The position numbers and the translations under genes are program-made. Below, in pieces: positions 3,042-46,409 of a DNA stretch of 64,000 nt. How positions within the stretch are numbered: position 1 is the first letter of the stretch; every line of letters starts with the position of its first letter. Source of the DNA: a bacterium (GTDB lineage Bacteria; Campylobacterota; Campylobacteria; Campylobacterales; Sulfurimonadaceae); assembly GCA_018822665.1 (NCBI GenBank), contig JAHJJX010000008.1, positions 1-64,000 on the forward strand. Direction: 5' to 3'. The notes under the pieces were generated by a model. It saw only the letters and a program-made list of their open reading frames with translations. It did no database searches and was not told where the DNA came from.

Positions 3042-3876
3042 AGAGATTTTTTTATGTTCTATATGCAATATTAATAGCGGCACATGTAATGAAGATTGTA
3101 AATTTTGCTCCCAAAGCGTGCGGTATAAAGCAGATATACAAAGATATAAACATAAACCTCTCGAAGATATTCTCAAAGAAGCCAAAAATGCCAGAGACAA
3201 TGGAGCGCTTGGTTTTTGTCTTGTAACCGCCGACAAAGGTTTAAACGACAAAACCCTAAAGTTTGTTTGTGATGTCGCCAAAGCCGTGCAAGAAGAAGTG
3301 CCGGAACTTAGACTGATAGCATGCAACGGAACAGCTACGCTTGAGCAGCTTTTAATCCTCAAAGAATCGGGAGTGAAGGCTTATAATCATAATCTTGAAA
3401 CTTCCAAAGCTTTTTATCCGCAGATATGCACGACGCACTCCTGGGAGGAAAGATACGAAACATGCCAAAACGTAAACAAAGCGGAGATGGTGCTTATAAC
3501 GGGTGGAATTTTCGGGCTGGGGGAAACGCAAGAAGACAGAATTTCCATGCTCGAAGCGCTCAACTCTTTAAACCCGACTTCCGTGCCTATTAACTTTTAC
3601 CATCACAACGAAGCGCTGGAGCTACAGCCAAATCCGCTCAATGCGGATGAAGCGCTTTCTCTCATAAAACTCACACGAGAAACAATTCCACATGCCCAAA
3701 GAATAATGGTTGCGGGAGGAAGAGATTTGATGTTTGGAGAAAGACAAAATGAGATTTTTGCCCATGGAGCGAACTCCATTGTCATAGGAAACTACCTTAC
3801 GACAAGCGGAAGAATCATGAGTAAAGATTTGCAAATGCTGAAATCTTTGCATCTTAGCGTCGCAAAAAAAGTATAA
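3034..3876 (+). CDS. bioB: Biotin synthase (radical SAM)
   Basis: Inserts sulfur into dethiobiotin in the last step of biotin synthesis. The radical-SAM cluster motif CX3CX2C is Cys18/Cys22/Cys25, preceded by the SICNINSG stretch typical of BioB. At 280 residues it is shorter than the E. coli enzyme (about 346), as usual for epsilonproteobacterial BioB. Start overlaps the preceding phosphodiesterase by eight bases. Biotin is needed by the biotin carboxyl carrier and carboxylases encoded elsewhere in the window (accB, accC, the pycA-type gene). An exact copy of the 11-base repeat lies within it at 3686-3696. Confidence 0.95.
   Translation: MDKEIFLCSICNINSGTCNEDCKFCSQSVRYKADIQRYKHKPLEDILKEAKNARDNGALGFCLVTADKGLNDKTLKFVCDVAKAVQEEVPELRLIACNGTATLEQLLILKESGVKAYNHNLETSKAFYPQICTTHSWEERYETCQNVNKAEMVLITGGIFGLGETQEDRISMLEALNSLNPTSVPINFYHHNEALELQPNPLNADEALSLIKLTRETIPHAQRIMVAGGRDLMFGERQNEIFAHGANSIVIGNYLTTSGRIMSKDLQMLKSLHLSVAKKV
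3686..3696 (-). repeat. 11-mer GGCATGTGGAA, exact copy in bioB
   Basis: Reads as Ile-Pro-His-Ala-Gln in the bioB frame. Confidence 0.8.
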
Positions 3877-29616: not shown

Positions 29617-30726
29617 CTATGAGTTTGTATCAAATAAGCTTAGTTGTATGTTTTCATTTTTATAAATAAATACATTAGAACTACCTTTTTTCTCTTTTTT
29701 AACGAAAGGTAGTCCACTCAAATATAATGAAAATTTTCTTGTATCAATATCATAATTTATTTTTTCTTTAATTTGTGCAGCTGTTAATGCCACACCTTTA
29801 ATTGCATTCATTATTTTTTCATCAAGAGCTGTTTCACCCTTTTTAAGTTCTGTTAAATTACCATTCATATTAACCGGTATTCCACCTTTTAAAATGAGTA
29901 AATCATTTGCATTGTTTTGAGTATTTTCTGGATTTCTAATATATATTGTTCTTTGGGCTTTCAGTCCTTCTAAAACACCGGACCAAGTACCACCTTTGCT
30001 ATCAGATTGAGCAACATATATCTCTTTTGATAATCCATAAATATATTTATTTCTTCCCATTGCCAACCCAGTACTCCAACCAGCTTTTGGAAAAAATGTA
30101 CTTAATATTAGTAAGTTCCCATCAATGATATCTTTGTAATATTTTTTCATACCACTCGAAAAAGTTAAAATACCTTGAGGCAAAACCAATATACTATGAC
30201 CCTTTGCTTTTACACTCTCTTCTAATGCCGCTTGGTCAACTCCTTTTGCTCCACCGCTAACTACACATTTGTATTCTTTTGTAGCTTTACTTGCAATATT
30301 TTTTGTAAATTCCAACGATTGGTTATCCGCATCTCTTGAACCTACTATTGCTATCGTATCATCATGTAAAAGACTTTTATTACCTTTGATATAAATGAGT
30401 GGTGGGGCAAATTTTAATTTTAAATTATCTTTTAATATTTCTGGATAATCCCTTGAATTAAATGGTATTAATTCATAACCTTGACTTAACATGTCTTCAA
30501 GTAAAAATGAATAATTTGGAAGTTCTTTTTTTGCTAGTTCTAAATCATTTATTTCTGTATTATCTAATTTAAATATTTCTAGCCATTCATTATGAGATAA
30601 ACTAAAAAATTCTTCAAATGTAATTTTTTGATTATGTATTATTCTGACAATCAACTTATTTGTTTTTAAAGTTGTCCATCTAGATAAATGAGCAAACAGC
30701 ATCCAGTAAACTAAATCAGTCTGCAA
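29617..30726 (-). CDS. DprA/Smf-family protein (partner of RecQ-PRTase)
   Basis: 369 residues. Central Rossmann-like DprA fold with IAIVGSRDADNQSL, VVSGGAKGVDQAALE and a GTWSGVLEGLKAQRTIYIR nucleotide-binding end. DprA binds single-stranded DNA and loads RecA in natural transformation, but here the flanks differ: the N-terminal part is unlike the SAM domain of housekeeping DprA, and the C-terminal part looks like a winged helix. The gene overlaps the upstream RecQ fusion by 11 bases, and both are far richer in A and T than their neighbours. Such stand-alone DprA genes linked to phosphoribosyltransferases have been proposed as immune modules; the normal competence dprA is probably elsewhere in the genome. 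Confidence 0.82.
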   Translation of the reverse strand: MQTDLVYWMLFAHLSRWTTLKTNKLIVRIIHNQKITFEEFFSLSHNEWLEIFKLDNTEINDLELAKKELPNYSFLLEDMLSQGYELIPFNSRDYPEILKDNLKLKFAPPLIYIKGNKSLLHDDTIAIVGSRDADNQSLEFTKNIASKATKEYKCVVSGGAKGVDQAALEESVKAKGHSILVLPQGILTFSSGMKKYYKDIIDGNLLILSTFFPKAGWSTGLAMGRNKYIYGLSKEIYVAQSDSKGGTWSGVLEGLKAQRTIYIRNPENTQNNANDLLILKGGIPVNMNGNLTELKKGETALDEKIMNAIKGVALTAAQIKEKINYDIDTRKFSLYLSGLPFVKKEKKGSSNVFIYKNENIQLSLFDTNS

Positions 30727-32725
30727 TATCGCCTCCTACAGTTTTCGCTATTACCAAAGGAGCTATAATTTTTGCACCTTTTTTTGTAAGCATTTTACCT
30801 ATCTCTTTAATAGTGGCACCACTATCAAATATATCATCAATTAGTAAAATTGATTTGTTTATTATATCGACACTTATATCAAAAGCATCTTTGATATTTT
30901 CAGTTTTTAATGCCCCATTTTGAAATATTTTTTGCTCTTTTGTCTCTTTAACTTTTTTCAATGAAGCAACTGGAAGCTTTAAAGTAGATGCTATTTTAGC
31001 GGCAAAATTTTCTACAAGTTTACCTGATTTTGTTGGTGGAACAAACAGCACTAAATCAAAATTTTGTTCTTTAAAAGTTCTTCCATAAGCTCTAAGCGTT
31101 TGTTTTAACAATATCGTTGGATAATCTCCACCATTTTCATATTTACATTTATGAATAATTTCTCCAACATTTGAAAATCCATAATAAGATGAAGCAACAC
31201 CGTTTATCAAATTTGTTCTGCTTGTTTCAACCTTTAAAACAGGAAAAAAATTATTTTGAAAATTTTGAATTTTTTCTCTATCACTTTCACCCATTGAAAA
31301 TTGATTTTTATTATGTAAACAACTATCACATATTTCACAATTGTTTAAGTTGTTGTCCCCTAAATAGTTACACAAATATAGCATCTTACAAAAATCAATA
31401 TTTGTATATTCAACCATTTTTTCAAATTCTTTTAATCTATGATTTCGTAAATTTTCAAATGCCGTAGTGTCGAGTTGTGGTGCATTATATTGATATTCAT
31501 ATTTTTTATTGCTACCATATTTTACTTCTCTTATTATTTTTTGATCTAATAAATCTGCTTTTATTGTTCTAACTTGTGTTTGTTTTAAATTTGTTGCTTT
31601 TGTTAAGTTTTTTTCACCTAATGGTTCTTCTTTTAATGCATTTATTACTTTTTCATATTTCTTTATTGATGGTCTAGCACTGTTTATAAAACTTAGTGGT
31701 AAGTCTACATCTTTTGGATTAAAAAGTAAAAAAATTTGGGCAGTTTTACCATCTCTTCCCGCTCTTCCAATCTCTTGATAATAATGTATAGGAGATTGTG
31801 GTATCTGTGTATGAATTATAAATCTTATATCTGCTTTATCTATACCCATACCTAAAGCATTTGTTGATATTACAGCTTTATATTTATTGTTCATCCACTC
31901 TTTTTCAACCAATTTTCTGCTATCGCTATCAAGTCCTGCATGATAGTAGATTGTATTTAATCGCTCACTTTCGCACCATTTTGAAAATATCTCTGCATTG
32001 CTCCTTGTTCCAGTATAAACAACACCATTACCCTGAATTTCTTGAAGATAGTTAGAAATCCAAGCCATTTTGTCTTCTTCACTCCCTACATGTATTACAT
32101 TGAGTTTTAAATTTTCACGAAGTAAATCACCACGAATAAGTTCAATATCTCCGCCAATCTGGTTTTTAATATCTTCTGCTACTTGTACGGTTGCTGTTGC
32201 AGTTGTTGCAAGAACTGGTATATGTGATGGTAGTAATTGCATTAAGTTTATAATTCTTCTAAACGCTGGTCTAAAATCATGTCCCCAAGATGATATACAG
32301 TGTGCTTCATCTACTACAACAAAAGATATATTCATTTTTGATACAGCCTCTTGCCATACACTATTTTCCTGTCTCTCTGGTGCAATATATAAAATTTTAA
32401 GTTCATTGTTTATAGCATTTTTTATTGTCAAACTATTTTCATCATCTGTTTGTTCACTATTAATTAAACCAACTTTGATACCTTTTTCATTAAGTGATTT
32501 TATTTGGTCTCTCATTAAAGCAATTAAAGGTGAAAAAATTATAGTTAAGCCATCAAATTGAGTAGCAGGAAATTGAAAAGTTAAAGATTTTCCAAATCCA
32601 GTTTTTTCAATTAATAAAACTCTTTTCTTTTGGAGTACTCTATCTATAGTTTCCCATTGGTCATCAAAAAAATTATCAAATCCAAAAATCTGTTTTAATT
32701 TTACTTCTGCTTCTTGTCTGTTCAT
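30716..32725 (-). CDS. RecQ-type helicase fused to a phosphoribosyltransferase domain
   Basis: 669 residues. Residues 1 to about 430 are a RecQ helicase: Walker A KTGFGKS at 41-47, DEAH at 139-142 in VVDEAHCISSWG, and the QEIGRAGRDG motif VI. Near 440-475 come Cys pairs (CKMLYLCNY, CEICDSC) of the RecQ zinc domain. There is no HRDC domain; instead residues about 500-669 are a type I phosphoribosyltransferase with the PRPP loop LLIDDIFDSGATIKEI (Asp630, Asp631, Thr638), as in ComFC. Housekeeping RecQ never has this tail. Very low GC (some 60-base lines near 20%) and flanking position suggest transfer. The 3' end overlaps the DprA-like gene. Confidence 0.87.
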   Translation of the reverse strand: MNRQEAEVKLKQIFGFDNFFDDQWETIDRVLQKKRVLLIEKTGFGKSLTFQFPATQFDGLTIIFSPLIALMRDQIKSLNEKGIKVGLINSEQTDDENSLTIKNAINNELKILYIAPERQENSVWQEAVSKMNISFVVVDEAHCISSWGHDFRPAFRRIINLMQLLPSHIPVLATTATATVQVAEDIKNQIGGDIELIRGDLLRENLKLNVIHVGSEEDKMAWISNYLQEIQGNGVVYTGTRSNAEIFSKWCESERLNTIYYHAGLDSDSRKLVEKEWMNNKYKAVISTNALGMGIDKADIRFIIHTQIPQSPIHYYQEIGRAGRDGKTAQIFLLFNPKDVDLPLSFINSARPSIKKYEKVINALKEEPLGEKNLTKATNLKQTQVRTIKADLLDQKIIREVKYGSNKKYEYQYNAPQLDTTAFENLRNHRLKEFEKMVEYTNIDFCKMLYLCNYLGDNNLNNCEICDSCLHNKNQFSMGESDREKIQNFQNNFFPVLKVETSRTNLINGVASSYYGFSNVGEIIHKCKYENGGDYPTILLKQTLRAYGRTFKEQNFDLVLFVPPTKSGKLVENFAAKIASTLKLPVASLKKVKETKEQKIFQNGALKTENIKDAFDISVDIINKSILLIDDIFDSGATIKEIGKMLTKKGAKIIAPLVIAKTVGGDIAD

Positions 32726-33015
32726 TTTTTACCTTAATGTTGCTGTTGTCATCTATTATATATAAAACAACTTGAAATTTACTAAATAAACACTAAATAT
32801 GTTTATTTAAATGATTATGATTTTGTTTTCCGATGATTATTACAAATTTTTCTATATCTCTATAAAATCCCTCCATTGCTAAAATAAAATTCTTCTACTG
32901 CTAAAAACAGCTTGATTGATACATCTTTTTTTTCATATACTTAAGAGATTCAATTGCAAGAGTTTATGATGTCAAAAAAAGAAACTTTCGGTATTTAATA
33001 CGCCAAGGGGCTCGC

Positions 33016-34260
33016 ATGAAGCTAATCATTAAAATAATTATAGCAGCGCTGTTAGTTTTGCTAGCCTCGTCCTATCTGCTAAGCAAAAAAGAAAAAAAGC
33101 AATATAGTGATGATGAGTTAAGGCAAACGGCACTCTCAAGGGATATGTCAAGTGTTCCAAGCACCTATAAAGAACTTTTAAAAGTGGTTGATAGCCCACA
33201 AAATAGATTAACTCAAGAGAAGATTGACTTAGGGAAAAGGCTGTTTTTTGATAAAGTTTTATCCAAAGACAGAGATATTAGCTGTGATTCCTGTCACATG
33301 ATAGATAGAGATATTAAGAATAAAAAAACATTCTCAAGTATGCTTCTCTCAAAGAATGCTACCCCAAACGATTGCGTTGTATGTCATTTATCTGACCAAA
33401 GCGGTACAGACAGGCTTGAAACTGCCATTGGGCACAGGCAACAAGAAAATCCATTTCACTTAAACACACTCTCCATCTTAAATTCTGCCTTGGCAAAACA
33501 CCAAACATGGAGCGGAGAGATTGACACCGTAGAAGAACAGGCAGGTGCCTCCATCCAAGATCCATATAAGATGAATTTAAATGCAGAAGAAGCACAGCAA
33601 AGACTCTCTTTAGATACATCCTATGTGCTCATGTTTGAAAAAGCGTTTCATGATTCTCAAAATCCGCACATGCCGACACTCACTTTTGAAAATACACAAA
33701 AAGCTATCGGTGCGTATGTAAGGACTCTTTTGACGCGTAGCGATTATGATAAATTTTTAGACGGCGACAATAATGCGATAAGCCAAGAAGCTAAAAAAGG
33801 TTTGGCAAACTTTATAAATTTTGGCTGTAAAGGGTGTCATACAGGCAAAGCCGTAGGGGGACAAAGCATACAGAAATTTCCACTCAGAGACTATAACAGT
33901 TTTCTTGATTTAACAAACACTTTTAATGAAAATGTTAAAGGAAGGTCCGTGAGCCAAGTCAGTTTTAATTTTAATATGTATCATCCCTTTCCCTTTGAAA
34001 ATGTTGGCGGATTTATGGGCAAAAACGGGCAACAGCTTTTTAGAGTTCCTTTGCTGAGAAATGTTACGAAAACATCGCCATACTTTCATAACGGTTCTAT
34101 CGCAAAGCTAAGAGATGCCGTGCAGCTTATGGCTAAACACCAACTAGGGATGAATCTTACCGATACGCAGACAGATGAGATAGTGGAATTTTTAAAAACT
34201 TTAGAAGGCAGTATTGTAGAGTATTCTATTCAAGACACGAGGGAAGCTTATGAAAACTGA
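33016..34260 (+). CDS. Tri-haem cytochrome c peroxidase / MauG-family protein
   Basis: 414 residues with an N-terminal membrane anchor or signal (about 3-22). Three CXXCH haem sites: 90-94, 120-124 and 271-275. Standard bacterial peroxidases have two; the 271 site and the 90 site match those, and the 120 site is extra. The C-terminal RNVTKTSPYFHNG motif is the family signature. It should reduce hydrogen peroxide (or act as a MauG-like oxidase) in the periplasm with electrons from cytochromes. The next gene overlaps it by 11 bases and encodes a multihaem cytochrome, a likely electron partner. Confidence 0.88.
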   Translation: MKLIIKIIIAALLVLLASSYLLSKKEKKQYSDDELRQTALSRDMSSVPSTYKELLKVVDSPQNRLTQEKIDLGKRLFFDKVLSKDRDISCDSCHMIDRDIKNKKTFSSMLLSKNATPNDCVVCHLSDQSGTDRLETAIGHRQQENPFHLNTLSILNSALAKHQTWSGEIDTVEEQAGASIQDPYKMNLNAEEAQQRLSLDTSYVLMFEKAFHDSQNPHMPTLTFENTQKAIGAYVRTLLTRSDYDKFLDGDNNAISQEAKKGLANFINFGCKGCHTGKAVGGQSIQKFPLRDYNSFLDLTNTFNENVKGRSVSQVSFNFNMYHPFPFENVGGFMGKNGQQLFRVPLLRNVTKTSPYFHNGSIAKLRDAVQLMAKHQLGMNLTDTQTDEIVEFLKTLEGSIVEYSIQDTREAYEN

Positions 34261-43772: not shown

Positions 43773-46409
43773 TCATTTTGTAATGTTTTTCTCCTCTTTA
43801 ATCATTTTTTCATAGAGTTTAAAAAGGTGTTCTAACCGCTCTTCATCGCTATCAAATGGCTTCTCTCTGTAGCAATTTTCTATGTACATGTCTAGGTTGT
43901 GGTGGGCGGTTTTTAGTCCGTCTGGCATTTTGTCTGGGTCGTAGAGTTCTGCCATGGTTTTGAGGTAGTTTTTGTCTCTCACTCGTTCGTCTAAAATGAG
44001 ATGCACCATCTCTTCTATGGCTTCTTTTTGTGTTTGGGTTATTTTTGGGAAGGGGAAGGTGTTGTAGCAAAGTACAGATGAATATCTTATTCGTGTTTCT
44101 AAGCTACCGCCAACTGCTTTCACCCATGTCATGTGCATTTGTGAAGTTATGACTCCAAAAATACATAAACTATCATAATAAATTACTTGAGCAGAATTTA
44201 ATATGACTGTAGATTCATTCAAAAAGCCAATAGGAATATATTTTCTTAATTCAGATGAAACGATAGGAATTATAATTGATGGGTTGCTTTTATATGTTAT
44301 AGACGTAAAAGAATGAGGTTTTTCTGAATATTCTTGTGTTGCACTTCTACTACTTGTTAATCTATAATTTTTAACATTTTGAATTCTTCTCTGAATTTCT
44401 GGAATATTTAAACTTAATAATTCATTTCCCCACAAACAGTATCTTTTAATACCATTTATAAACTCATTAGCTCCAGATACTTCTTTGATATTTTGTTCTA
44501 TATCACGATACTGATTGACAAGTTCATTTTTTTCATTTTCTGTCAACATTAAATTACCATTTTCTCTTGGTTCATTTCCATATATCATCAATGGAAAATC
44601 AGAAAGTGGCTTTTGTCTTTTATTAATATAAAAAGTGTTTCCACTTGCTAAATAAGGATTAATACTTAATGTTTCATGCTTTATGGTTTCATTAAAAATA
44701 TATTTTTTATTTTTTAAAATATTTGATAATCCTATAATTACAACTGTTACTCCTGCATTCGCCTTTGCATTATTTGACCATCTAAATGACTGATGGGCAA
44801 AAAATATTTCCAAATCATCGCCTAAAATTTTTTGCCATATTAATGCGACTTGTTCACCTTGGTTTACTGAATTTGTAGTTACAAATGCAAATTTAGAATT
44901 TATTTTTTTGATATAATCAGCACCTTTGTAAAACCAACAAACTATATAATCAACTTTTTTATAACCTTTGATAGCTCCTATAGAATATTCCATATCCTCT
45001 TTTTGCTCTTTGTTTTGGTTTCGAGAACCAACATACGGCGGATTCCCCAAAATATAAATCTCATCCCCTTGCACTTTTGGGCACACCTCTTCCCAGTTTA
45101 GTCTTGTCGCATTTCCTTGGATGATGTTTCCGCCGTTTTTAAGAGGGAGTGTCGGGGTGCAGTCTCCGAACTTCTTTTTGAACTCCATGTTCATTTGATG
45201 CTCTGCAAGCCAAAGCGACAAAATCGCCACTTCATGGGCAAAGTCATCTAGCTCTATGCCGTAAAACTGAGAGAGTTTTATGCTTGGCATGTGGAGCATC
45301 TGTGCACTCTCAAAGATTTTCATCTCTAACTTTCTCAGCTCTTTGTAGGCGATGATGAGAAAGTTTCCGCTTCCACATGCCGGGTCAAATATTTTGAGAT
45401 TTGTGATGCGGGTATGGAGTTGGTTGAGTTTTTTGAAGTTCCCTTTTGCCGCTTCAAACTCCGCATATAACTCTTCTAAAAAAAGAGGATTGATAACTTT
45501 CATGATGTTTGGAACTGAAGTGTAGTGCATTCCCATTCCGCCACGATGCTCTTCACTTACCACCGCTTGAATCATGGAGCCGAAAATGTCGGGATTTATC
45601 TGCGACCAGTTAAGCTCTGCACCGCACTCTATAAGCAGACGGCGAGACTTTGCACTAAACTTTGGAAGCGCTACATTGTCACGAAACAAGCCGCCGTTTA
45701 CATAAGGAAAACTCTTTAAATGGCTTGAAATATTTCGCTCAGTGGAGTTGAGCGTCTCAAAAAGTGTGTTTATGTGAACATCTAAGTCGCTACCGTCAGG
45801 TTTTGAGAGAGCTTTGATGTAGTTTGTAAACTGATTTTCCTCAACAAATATGTCGGTATCTTCCGCAAAGTAGCAAAATAAAAGGCGTGTCAAAAAGAGA
45901 TTGAGTGCATGTATCTCTTCATGAGTATGTGTCGGGTTCTCTTTTTTTAGCTCTTCATACAGCTTCGCCATTTTGATAGAAGCTTTGACATCCGCCTCTT
46001 TTTCATCATAAACCGCCGCACGCTCCACTCCGGCAAGCGGCCAAAAAAAGTCTGAGTTTTTAGGGAGTTCTGTAAGCGGAATGCTCAGTTTTGTTTGCAG
46101 ATTTATATCAATCGCTTTTAAGGTCACATAGTCTGTAACTACGATAAACCTCAAAGCTTTTTTACTTTTTACCAACTCGCCAAACACATTCTCTAACTCT
46201 TGCGTGCTTGCCTCTTTAAAAAATAGCTTTTTATTTTTGATTTGTAACTCGCCGTTTACATGTAAAGTATTTACATCGCTGTTTTTTCTAAGCCTTGCAA
46301 CATTGGCCTTGGGCATCTCATACGCCAAAAGAAAATCAAAGATAAAATCATTTTTGTTAAGATTGTCCACTAAAGTTTGCAGTTTTATTTCAAGTTGTAG
46401 TATGTCCAT
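43773..46409 (-). CDS. Type II-like DNA adenine/cytosine-N4 methyltransferase (YeeA/MmeI-like)
   Basis: 878 residues. SAM motif I FDPACGSGNFL from about residue 341; catalytic NPPY at 456-459, the amino-methyltransferase motif giving N6-adenine or N4-cytosine methylation. The N-terminal 330 residues show no PD-(D/E)XK nuclease motif that I can see, unlike true MmeI-type enzymes, so cleavage is likely assigned to the helicase/GIY-YIG partners. The segment encoding the target-recognition part (about 44.1-45.0 kb) is strikingly AT-rich compared with both flanks. First gene of the operon. Exact 11-mer at 45371-45381 spans motif I; near-copy 45287-45297. Confidence 0.88.
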   Translation of the reverse strand: MDILQLEIKLQTLVDNLNKNDFIFDFLLAYEMPKANVARLRKNSDVNTLHVNGELQIKNKKLFFKEASTQELENVFGELVKSKKALRFIVVTDYVTLKAIDINLQTKLSIPLTELPKNSDFFWPLAGVERAAVYDEKEADVKASIKMAKLYEELKKENPTHTHEEIHALNLFLTRLLFCYFAEDTDIFVEENQFTNYIKALSKPDGSDLDVHINTLFETLNSTERNISSHLKSFPYVNGGLFRDNVALPKFSAKSRRLLIECGAELNWSQINPDIFGSMIQAVVSEEHRGGMGMHYTSVPNIMKVINPLFLEELYAEFEAAKGNFKKLNQLHTRITNLKIFDPACGSGNFLIIAYKELRKLEMKIFESAQMLHMPSIKLSQFYGIELDDFAHEVAILSLWLAEHQMNMEFKKKFGDCTPTLPLKNGGNIIQGNATRLNWEEVCPKVQGDEIYILGNPPYVGSRNQNKEQKEDMEYSIGAIKGYKKVDYIVCWFYKGADYIKKINSKFAFVTTNSVNQGEQVALIWQKILGDDLEIFFAHQSFRWSNNAKANAGVTVVIIGLSNILKNKKYIFNETIKHETLSINPYLASGNTFYINKRQKPLSDFPLMIYGNEPRENGNLMLTENEKNELVNQYRDIEQNIKEVSGANEFINGIKRYCLWGNELLSLNIPEIQRRIQNVKNYRLTSSRSATQEYSEKPHSFTSITYKSNPSIIIPIVSSELRKYIPIGFLNESTVILNSAQVIYYDSLCIFGVITSQMHMTWVKAVGGSLETRIRYSSVLCYNTFPFPKITQTQKEAIEEMVHLILDERVRDKNYLKTMAELYDPDKMPDGLKTAHHNLDMYIENCYREKPFDSDEERLEHLFKLYEKMIKEEKNITK
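45371..45381 (-). repeat. 11-mer, exact copy in the methyltransferase motif I
   Basis: Reads as Pro-Ala-Cys-Gly-Ser, part of the SAM-binding motif I. Confidence 0.8.

What the first reader, a model, noticed from the sequence alone, without database searches (positions are those of the whole stretch)
29617..32725. RecQ-phosphoribosyltransferase fusion with a DprA-like partner: candidate defence or DNA-capture module
Seen: a RecQ helicase whose HRDC region is replaced by a PRPP-loop domain (Asp630, Asp631, Thr638), overlapping a DprA-like gene by 11 bases; both are clearly more AT-rich than flanking genes. Known: DprA and the ComFC phosphoribosyltransferase are competence proteins, and DprA/phosphoribosyltransferase gene pairs have been proposed as prokaryotic immune modules. 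Inference: a transferred two-gene system that senses or processes foreign single-stranded DNA and uses a PRPP or nucleotide signal. It could oppose, or exploit, the uptake suggested by the 11-mer.
Basis: partly seen in the sequence, partly recalled or inferred. Interest (0 to 1): 0.75.

Follow-up and report, generated by a model that had tools for sequence, protein, structure and literature searches.

The report
PsyrTA-type toxin–antitoxin pair, recently inserted
Two genes in a Sulfurimonas-like bacterium form a known kind of toxin–antitoxin and candidate virus-defence pair (a DNA helicase fused to a nucleotide-handling enzyme, plus a DprA-like partner), dropped as a unit into an otherwise conserved gene cluster; it is an ordinary new member of a described family.

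Summary
A RecQ helicase (669 aa) whose C-terminus is a type I phosphoribosyltransferase (PRTase) with an intact PRPP loop (LLIDDIFDSGAT) overlaps by 11 bases a DprA-fold protein (369 aa). Both are far more AT-rich (29% GC) than their neighbours (37%). The pair is not an unknown module: it is PsyrTA (= RqlHI), a described toxin–antitoxin system listed among anti-phage systems. PADLOC PsyrT matches the whole protein (E 8e-254) and PsyrA the partner (4e-83); gene order is the diagnostic toxin-first one. All 80 best relatives in the genome collection keep the PRPP loop and a PsyrA, 79 of them directly downstream. The pair moves as a unit: 2 of 135 genomes of the genus carry this lineage; in 17 others the flanking genes lie close together without it; DNA homology to other families and to a Gammaproteobacterium stops at the two gene borders. 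Likely mechanism: PsyrA restrains PsyrT, and release lets the PRTase poison nucleotide and DNA metabolism. Phage defence is plausible by family but unproven (one E. coli PsyrTA showed none). The 'DNA-capture/uptake' reading has no support. Verdict: ordinary, new member of a known kind.

The parts
30716..32725 (-). psyrT (rqlH-like): RecQ helicase core (residues 1 to about 475) fused to C-terminal type I phosphoribosyltransferase (about 500-662); toxin
   Evidence: PADLOC PsyrT E 7.6e-254 over 1-666 of 669; Pfam DEAD, Helicase_C, Pribosyltran; AlphaFold model pLDDT 86.8, helicase half matches BLM/RecQ cores Z 27-29
32582..32605 (-). Walker A of psyrT (KTGFGKSL, residues 41-48)
   Evidence: T42, G43, G45, K46, S47 invariant in 33 sequences; conserved in the 80 loci
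30812..30847 (-). PRPP loop of psyrT (LLIDDIFDSGAT, residues 627-638)
   Evidence: D630, D631, D634, S635, T638 invariant in 33 sequences; loop present in the 80 loci; matches the D-I-x-D motif whose mutation (D663A) removes toxicity of E. coli RqlH (PMC4670107)
31319..31390 (-). RecQ-type zinc cysteines of psyrT C446, C463, C466, C469
   Evidence: Present in the window protein and genus relatives; C466 in all 80 loci, the other three in 15-35
29617..30726 (-). psyrA (rqlI-like): DprA-fold antitoxin with N-terminal helical domain and C-terminal winged-helix-like tail
   Evidence: PADLOC PsyrA E 4.1e-83; Pfam DNA_processg_A E 3.4e-39; AlphaFold pLDDT 89.4, matches DprA 3maj Z 27.6, 3uqz Z 26.8 and ShosA 8zva Z 25.3
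30716..30726 (-). 11-base overlap of psyrT end and psyrA TTG start (likely translational coupling)
   Evidence: same -11 spacing in L017-L021
28644..29570 (+). left flank, not part of the system: AraC-type regulator of a conserved SDR-AraC-(SDR2)-CCP-multihaem cytochrome block
33016..34260 (+). right flank, not part of the system: cytochrome c peroxidase-like gene of the same block; the pair sits between the two in opposite orientation
29625..32738 (.). unit of transfer: DNA homology (82-83%) to Arcobacteraceae MAGs and another Sulfurimonas begins about 13 b before psyrT and ends within 8 b of the psyrA stop
   Evidence: blastn of cassette plus flanks

Best explanation
A complete PsyrTA (RqlHI) toxin-antitoxin pair, acquired as a bare two-gene cassette and inserted between an AraC regulator and a cytochrome c peroxidase gene. 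PsyrT is a RecQ-core helicase carrying a C-terminal PRTase that is the toxic activity; PsyrA, a DprA-fold protein translated by coupling right after it, binds and restrains PsyrT. When an invader or DNA damage upsets the complex, the PRTase acts on PRPP and nucleotides, damages the nucleotide pool and DNA, and stops the cell (abortive defence). Shown here: identity, intact motifs, fixed gene pair, co-divergence, transfer as a unit. Known from relatives: PRTase-dependent genotoxicity, rescue by the DprA-like partner, physical interaction. Inferred: the trigger, the chemistry, and that the outcome here is phage defence.
For: PADLOC PsyrT 7.6e-254 full length and PsyrA 4.1e-83. The C-terminus alone still best matches PsyrT (8e-54), then DpdF, ShosT and a retron PRTase. 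Toxin-first order and overlapping genes as in rqlHI. 80/80 relatives keep the PRPP loop, Walker A and a PsyrA, 79 adjacent downstream. PsyrT and PsyrA distances correlate, r 0.83, Mantel p 0.001. Transfer: 2/135 genomes of the genus carry this lineage (79%/85% identity), 17 have the flanks close together without it; DNA homology stops at the gene borders and GC3 is about 0.15 against 0.33-0.41; nearest proteins are in another family (Arcobacteraceae, 87%) and a Gammaproteobacterium MAG (74%). A diverged sister pair lies inside a type I restriction locus in two congeners. Experiments on relatives: PMC4670107, ShosTA as summarised in PMC12593503, DprA+PRTase protection in PMC9122126.
Against: No experiment on this pair. 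An E. coli PsyrTA gave no detectable phage protection (PMC12409345). Neighbours of related pairs are mostly metabolic; the excess of defence genes near the pair over distant genes is slight. rqlH occurs without rqlI in many Gram-positives, so toxicity may not be universal. Substrate and product of the PsyrT PRTase are unknown.
Confidence: 0.82

Rival explanations
1. Selfish addiction module: the same toxin-antitoxin pair persists because loss of the antitoxin kills the cell, without benefit against phages.
For: It moves as a bare cassette between families and phyla and here lies among metabolic genes rather than in a defence island; an E. coli PsyrTA gave no phage protection; no fitness loss of a rqlHI double deletion was seen (PMC4670107).
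Against: A related DprA+PRTase pair protects against T7 and lambda (PMC9122126); sister pairs sit inside a type I restriction locus.
Confidence: 0.3
2. DNA repair module: PsyrT is mainly a helicase for damaged forks, tuned by PRTase and PsyrA.
For: All helicase motifs intact; helicase half superposes on RecQ cores over about 400 residues; M. smegmatis RqlH is an active helicase (cited in PMC4670107).
Against: Patchy presence; the genome already has a separate RecQ (40% identical over the helicase core); strict linkage to PsyrA; helicase-dead RqlH is still toxic.
Confidence: 0.08
3. Competence or DNA-capture module tied to the 11-mer.
For: DprA fold; the genome carries 859 copies of GGCATGTGGA, suggestive of an uptake signal.
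Against: The 10-mer is confined to this species (0-7 copies in 30 relatives) whereas the pair is spread over many phyla; a separate DprA exists at C4; no copy inside the pair, though about one is expected, so its absence says little.
Confidence: 0.03

Closest known systems
PsyrTA / RqlHI (P. syringae; E. coli F11)
   Same: RecQ helicase + C-terminal PRTase followed by close or overlapping DprA-like gene; same motifs; full-length profile matches
   Different: Only about 31-36% identical to full-length plasmid-borne and diverged congeneric copies; lies alone in a Sulfurimonas-like chromosome contig; shorter PRTase linker than the restriction-locus sister lineage
ShosTA
   Same: PRTase toxin with DprA-fold antitoxin; PsyrA model aligns with ShosA structure 8zva (Z 25.3, 275 residues, 3.8 A); PRTase part weakly matches ShosT (1.6e-5)
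   Different: ShosT profile is 237 aa long without a helicase; ShosA profile matches far less well than PsyrA
DprA + PRTase system of P2-like phages (Rousset et al. 2022, PMC9122126)
   Same: DprA with PRTase; shown to protect from T7 and lambda
   Different: Described as a PRTase, no helicase fusion mentioned
Housekeeping RecQ and DprA
   Same: Helicase core and DprA fold
   Different: No HRDC, added PRTase; NCBIfam recQ and dprA equivalog cut-offs not reached (374 of 640; 105 of 191 bits); the genome has its own RecQ and DprA elsewhere

Membership tests
PsyrTA (RqlHI) | Toxin = RecQ helicase + C-terminal PRTase, full length | tested here: met
   PADLOC PsyrT 1-666 vs 1-688/689, E 7.6e-254; Pfam domains
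PsyrTA (RqlHI) | DprA-like antitoxin gene directly downstream, often overlapping | tested here: met
   PsyrA E 4.1e-83, 11-base overlap
PsyrTA (RqlHI) | PRPP loop and Walker A intact | tested here: met
PsyrTA (RqlHI) | Toxicity neutralised by the partner | not testable with these tools
   needs an expression experiment; shown for RqlHI (PMC4670107)
PsyrTA (RqlHI) | Anti-phage activity | not testable with these tools
   family listed as defence; one E. coli member inactive in tests (PMC12409345)
ShosTA | Stand-alone PRTase toxin plus ShosA | tested here: not met
   PRTase is fused to a RecQ helicase; ShosA profile scores far below PsyrA (2.1e-31 vs 4.1e-83)
DpdF (Dpd system helicase) | DpdF equivalog score and dpd gene neighbours | tested here: not met
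   174 bits of 550 needed; no other dpd gene among 33 window proteins
Competence DprA | dprA equivalog score; chromosomal core gene | tested here: not met
   105 of 191 bits; separate DprA at C4; psyrA absent from nearly all congeners

The most novel reading that the evidence does not exclude
In a species whose genome appears to carry its own DNA-uptake signal, the pair polices incoming single-stranded DNA from transformation: PsyrA's DprA fold senses imported ssDNA and releases the PRTase toxin, making PsyrTA an uptake checkpoint.
Probability: 0.03. Interest if true: 0.6.

Novelty: new member of a known kind. Interest (0 to 1): 0.2.

Why it matters
It places an intact PsyrTA in a Sulfurimonas-like bacterium and gives a clean case of a bare two-gene toxin–antitoxin cassette moving between families and phyla without a visible mobile element. 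The empty site in congeners and the sharp unit borders make it a tidy natural example for asking how such cassettes insert. The family's open questions, what PsyrT's PRTase makes and what triggers it, are unsolved but can be studied as well in existing E. coli members.

Tried and rejected
(1) An apparent lead that four relatives lack both the PRPP motif and the DprA gene was an artefact of my regular expression and ORF rule; alignment and tblastn show all 80 have both. (2) Defence-island enrichment: 120 genes within 1.8 kb of related pairs against 120 genes more than 6 kb away; a few more defence hits near (SoFic, AriA, PtuA, AbiEii, restriction genes) than far (JetA/B, methylases), but the lists are truncated and the excess small, so inconclusive. 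(3) Insertion-site repeats: nothing beyond chance-level matches brackets the pair, and no integrase or transposase lies in the gap. (4) The fold search of PsyrT tests only the helicase half; the PRTase half was judged by sequence profiles. (5) Phage records hold only partial, helicase-core matches, no full PsyrT; seven plasmid records hold a near full-length relative.

Full report
Observation. psyrT runs from 32725 to 30716 on the minus strand (669 aa) and psyrA from 30726 to 29617 (369 aa), sharing 11 bases. Pfam finds DEAD, Helicase_C and Pribosyltran domains in the first and DNA_processg_A in the second, and no HRDC. The PRPP loop LLIDDIFDSGAT contains the named Asp630, Asp631 and Thr638. 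The pair has 28.9% GC against 37.0% for the rest of the window, third-position GC of 0.15-0.16 against 0.33-0.41 for eight neighbouring genes, and is the most AT-rich 3.1 kb of the window.

Identity. PADLOC matches PsyrT over its whole length (E 7.6e-254) and PsyrA (4.1e-83); the next families match only the helicase core or the DprA fold. PsyrTA is a validated toxin-antitoxin family from Pseudomonas syringae (Sberro et al. 2013, as cited in PMC9122126 and PMC8790059). Its orthologue RqlHI was dissected in E. coli F11 (PMC4670107): RqlH is genotoxic through its PRTase, D663 in the PRPP loop is needed, RqlI (DprA-like) counters and binds it, and rqlH always precedes rqlI. All sequence hallmarks are met here. 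The housekeeping RecQ and DprA families are excluded by curated scores, and the genome has separate copies of both.

Structure. AlphaFold models are confident (pLDDT 86.8 for PsyrT, 89.4 for PsyrA). The helicase half of PsyrT aligns with RecQ/BLM cores (Z 27-29 over about 400 residues). PsyrA aligns with DprA of R. palustris and S. pneumoniae (Z 27.6, 26.8) and with ShosA of E. coli (Z 25.3). The C-terminal 190 residues alone match PsyrT (8e-54), ShosT (1.6e-5), a retron PRTase (0.0017), and weakly hypoxanthine PRTases and PRPP synthetases of known structure.

Conservation of the unit. A scan of one genome per species gave 80 best loci in Campylobacterota, Bacteroidota, Ignavibacteriota, Cloacimonadota, Pseudomonadota, the archaeon Altarchaeum and others. 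All 80 have the PRPP loop and Walker A, and all 80 have a PsyrA, 79 of them immediately downstream. In the exception, L047, an extra 554-aa protein with a PRTase domain lies between the two. PsyrT and PsyrA diverge together (r 0.83, Mantel p 0.001), as expected of partners inherited as a unit.

Transfer. Of 135 genomes of the genus only the window's own and G045 (the same contig as Sulfurimonas sp. OB8, L020) carry this lineage; G036 and G134 carry a sister lineage (about 31-36% identical) between hsdR-like and hsdM-like genes, and G005 has it too with a different downstream gene. In 17 congeners, G045 among them, the AraC regulator and the cytochrome c peroxidase that flank the pair lie 0.1-1.1 kb apart without it, in a conserved SDR-AraC-(SDR)-CCP-multihaem cytochrome block. 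In two more (G009, G059) other genes fill the gap, so the spot tolerates insertions. In G045 the pair lies elsewhere, near recR. DNA identity of 82-83% to Arcobacteraceae MAGs and G045, and 78-81% to a Gammaproteobacterium MAG, starts about 13 bases before psyrT and stops at the end of psyrA. The protein tree puts the window nearest to Arcobacteraceae, with a gammaproteobacterial sequence inside the same fully supported group. MAG binning errors could explain single cases, but not the empty sites.

Mechanism. The best reading is a toxin-antitoxin pair in which PsyrA restrains PsyrT and release lets the PRTase attack nucleotide metabolism, with DNA damage and arrest. For ShosTA a review reports PRTase and pyrophosphatase activity that disturbs purine pools, an antitoxin that binds DNA, and phage T7 Gp0.7 as trigger (PMC12593503). 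A DprA+PRTase pair from P2-like phages protects E. coli from T7 and lambda (PMC9122126). Against an automatic defence label, PsyrTA of E. coli NILS69 had no detectable protective effect (PMC12409345), and deletion of rqlHI had no fitness effect in the tests used. The neighbour survey was inconclusive; in this window the only other defence hit is a type IIG restriction enzyme about 11 kb away.

Uptake idea. None lies in the pair, where about one copy would be expected, so the absence is uninformative.

Verdict. A well-preserved PsyrTA acquired by transfer. New member of a known kind; low interest by itself.

Noticed in passing
whole genome G000; window copies at 3686, 8330, 9190, 9527, 10073, 14342, 25362, 25375, 37710, 42915, 45371, 47105, 51934, 55708: GGCATGTGGA occurs 859 times in 2.5 Mb (422 forward, 437 reverse; reversed control 2) but 0-7 times in 30 relatives including congeners: looks like a species-specific DNA-uptake-type sequence, sometimes as close inverted pairs (25362/25375). 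To my knowledge none is described in Campylobacterota.
   Followed up: partly
L047:2362-7183 (Flavobacterium sp. UBA8409): A 554-aa protein whose C-terminus matches PsyrT/ShosT PRTase domains lies between psyrT and psyrA with overlapping start: a possible three-gene variant with two PRTases.
   Followed up: no
window 43773-46409: Type IIG restriction enzyme-methyltransferase (PADLOC E 8e-292) in another AT-rich patch, about 11 kb from the pair.
   Followed up: no
L011, L012, L016: Sister PsyrTA lineage in three congeners; in L011 and L012 it is embedded between hsdR-like and hsdM-like genes of a type I restriction locus.
   Followed up: partly
L010/L160:145-2154: PsyrT of G045 reads IIFFFFFALMRDQ where relatives have a motif like IIFSPLIALMRDQ (helicase motif Ia region): assembly error or a lesion in the helicase.
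   Followed up: no
L019, L021, L061, L066, L072, L085 and others: PsyrA comes in two lengths, about 370-400 aa with and about 310-325 aa without the C-terminal winged-helix-like tail, in line with the report that this domain of RqlI is dispensable (PMC4670107).
   Followed up: no
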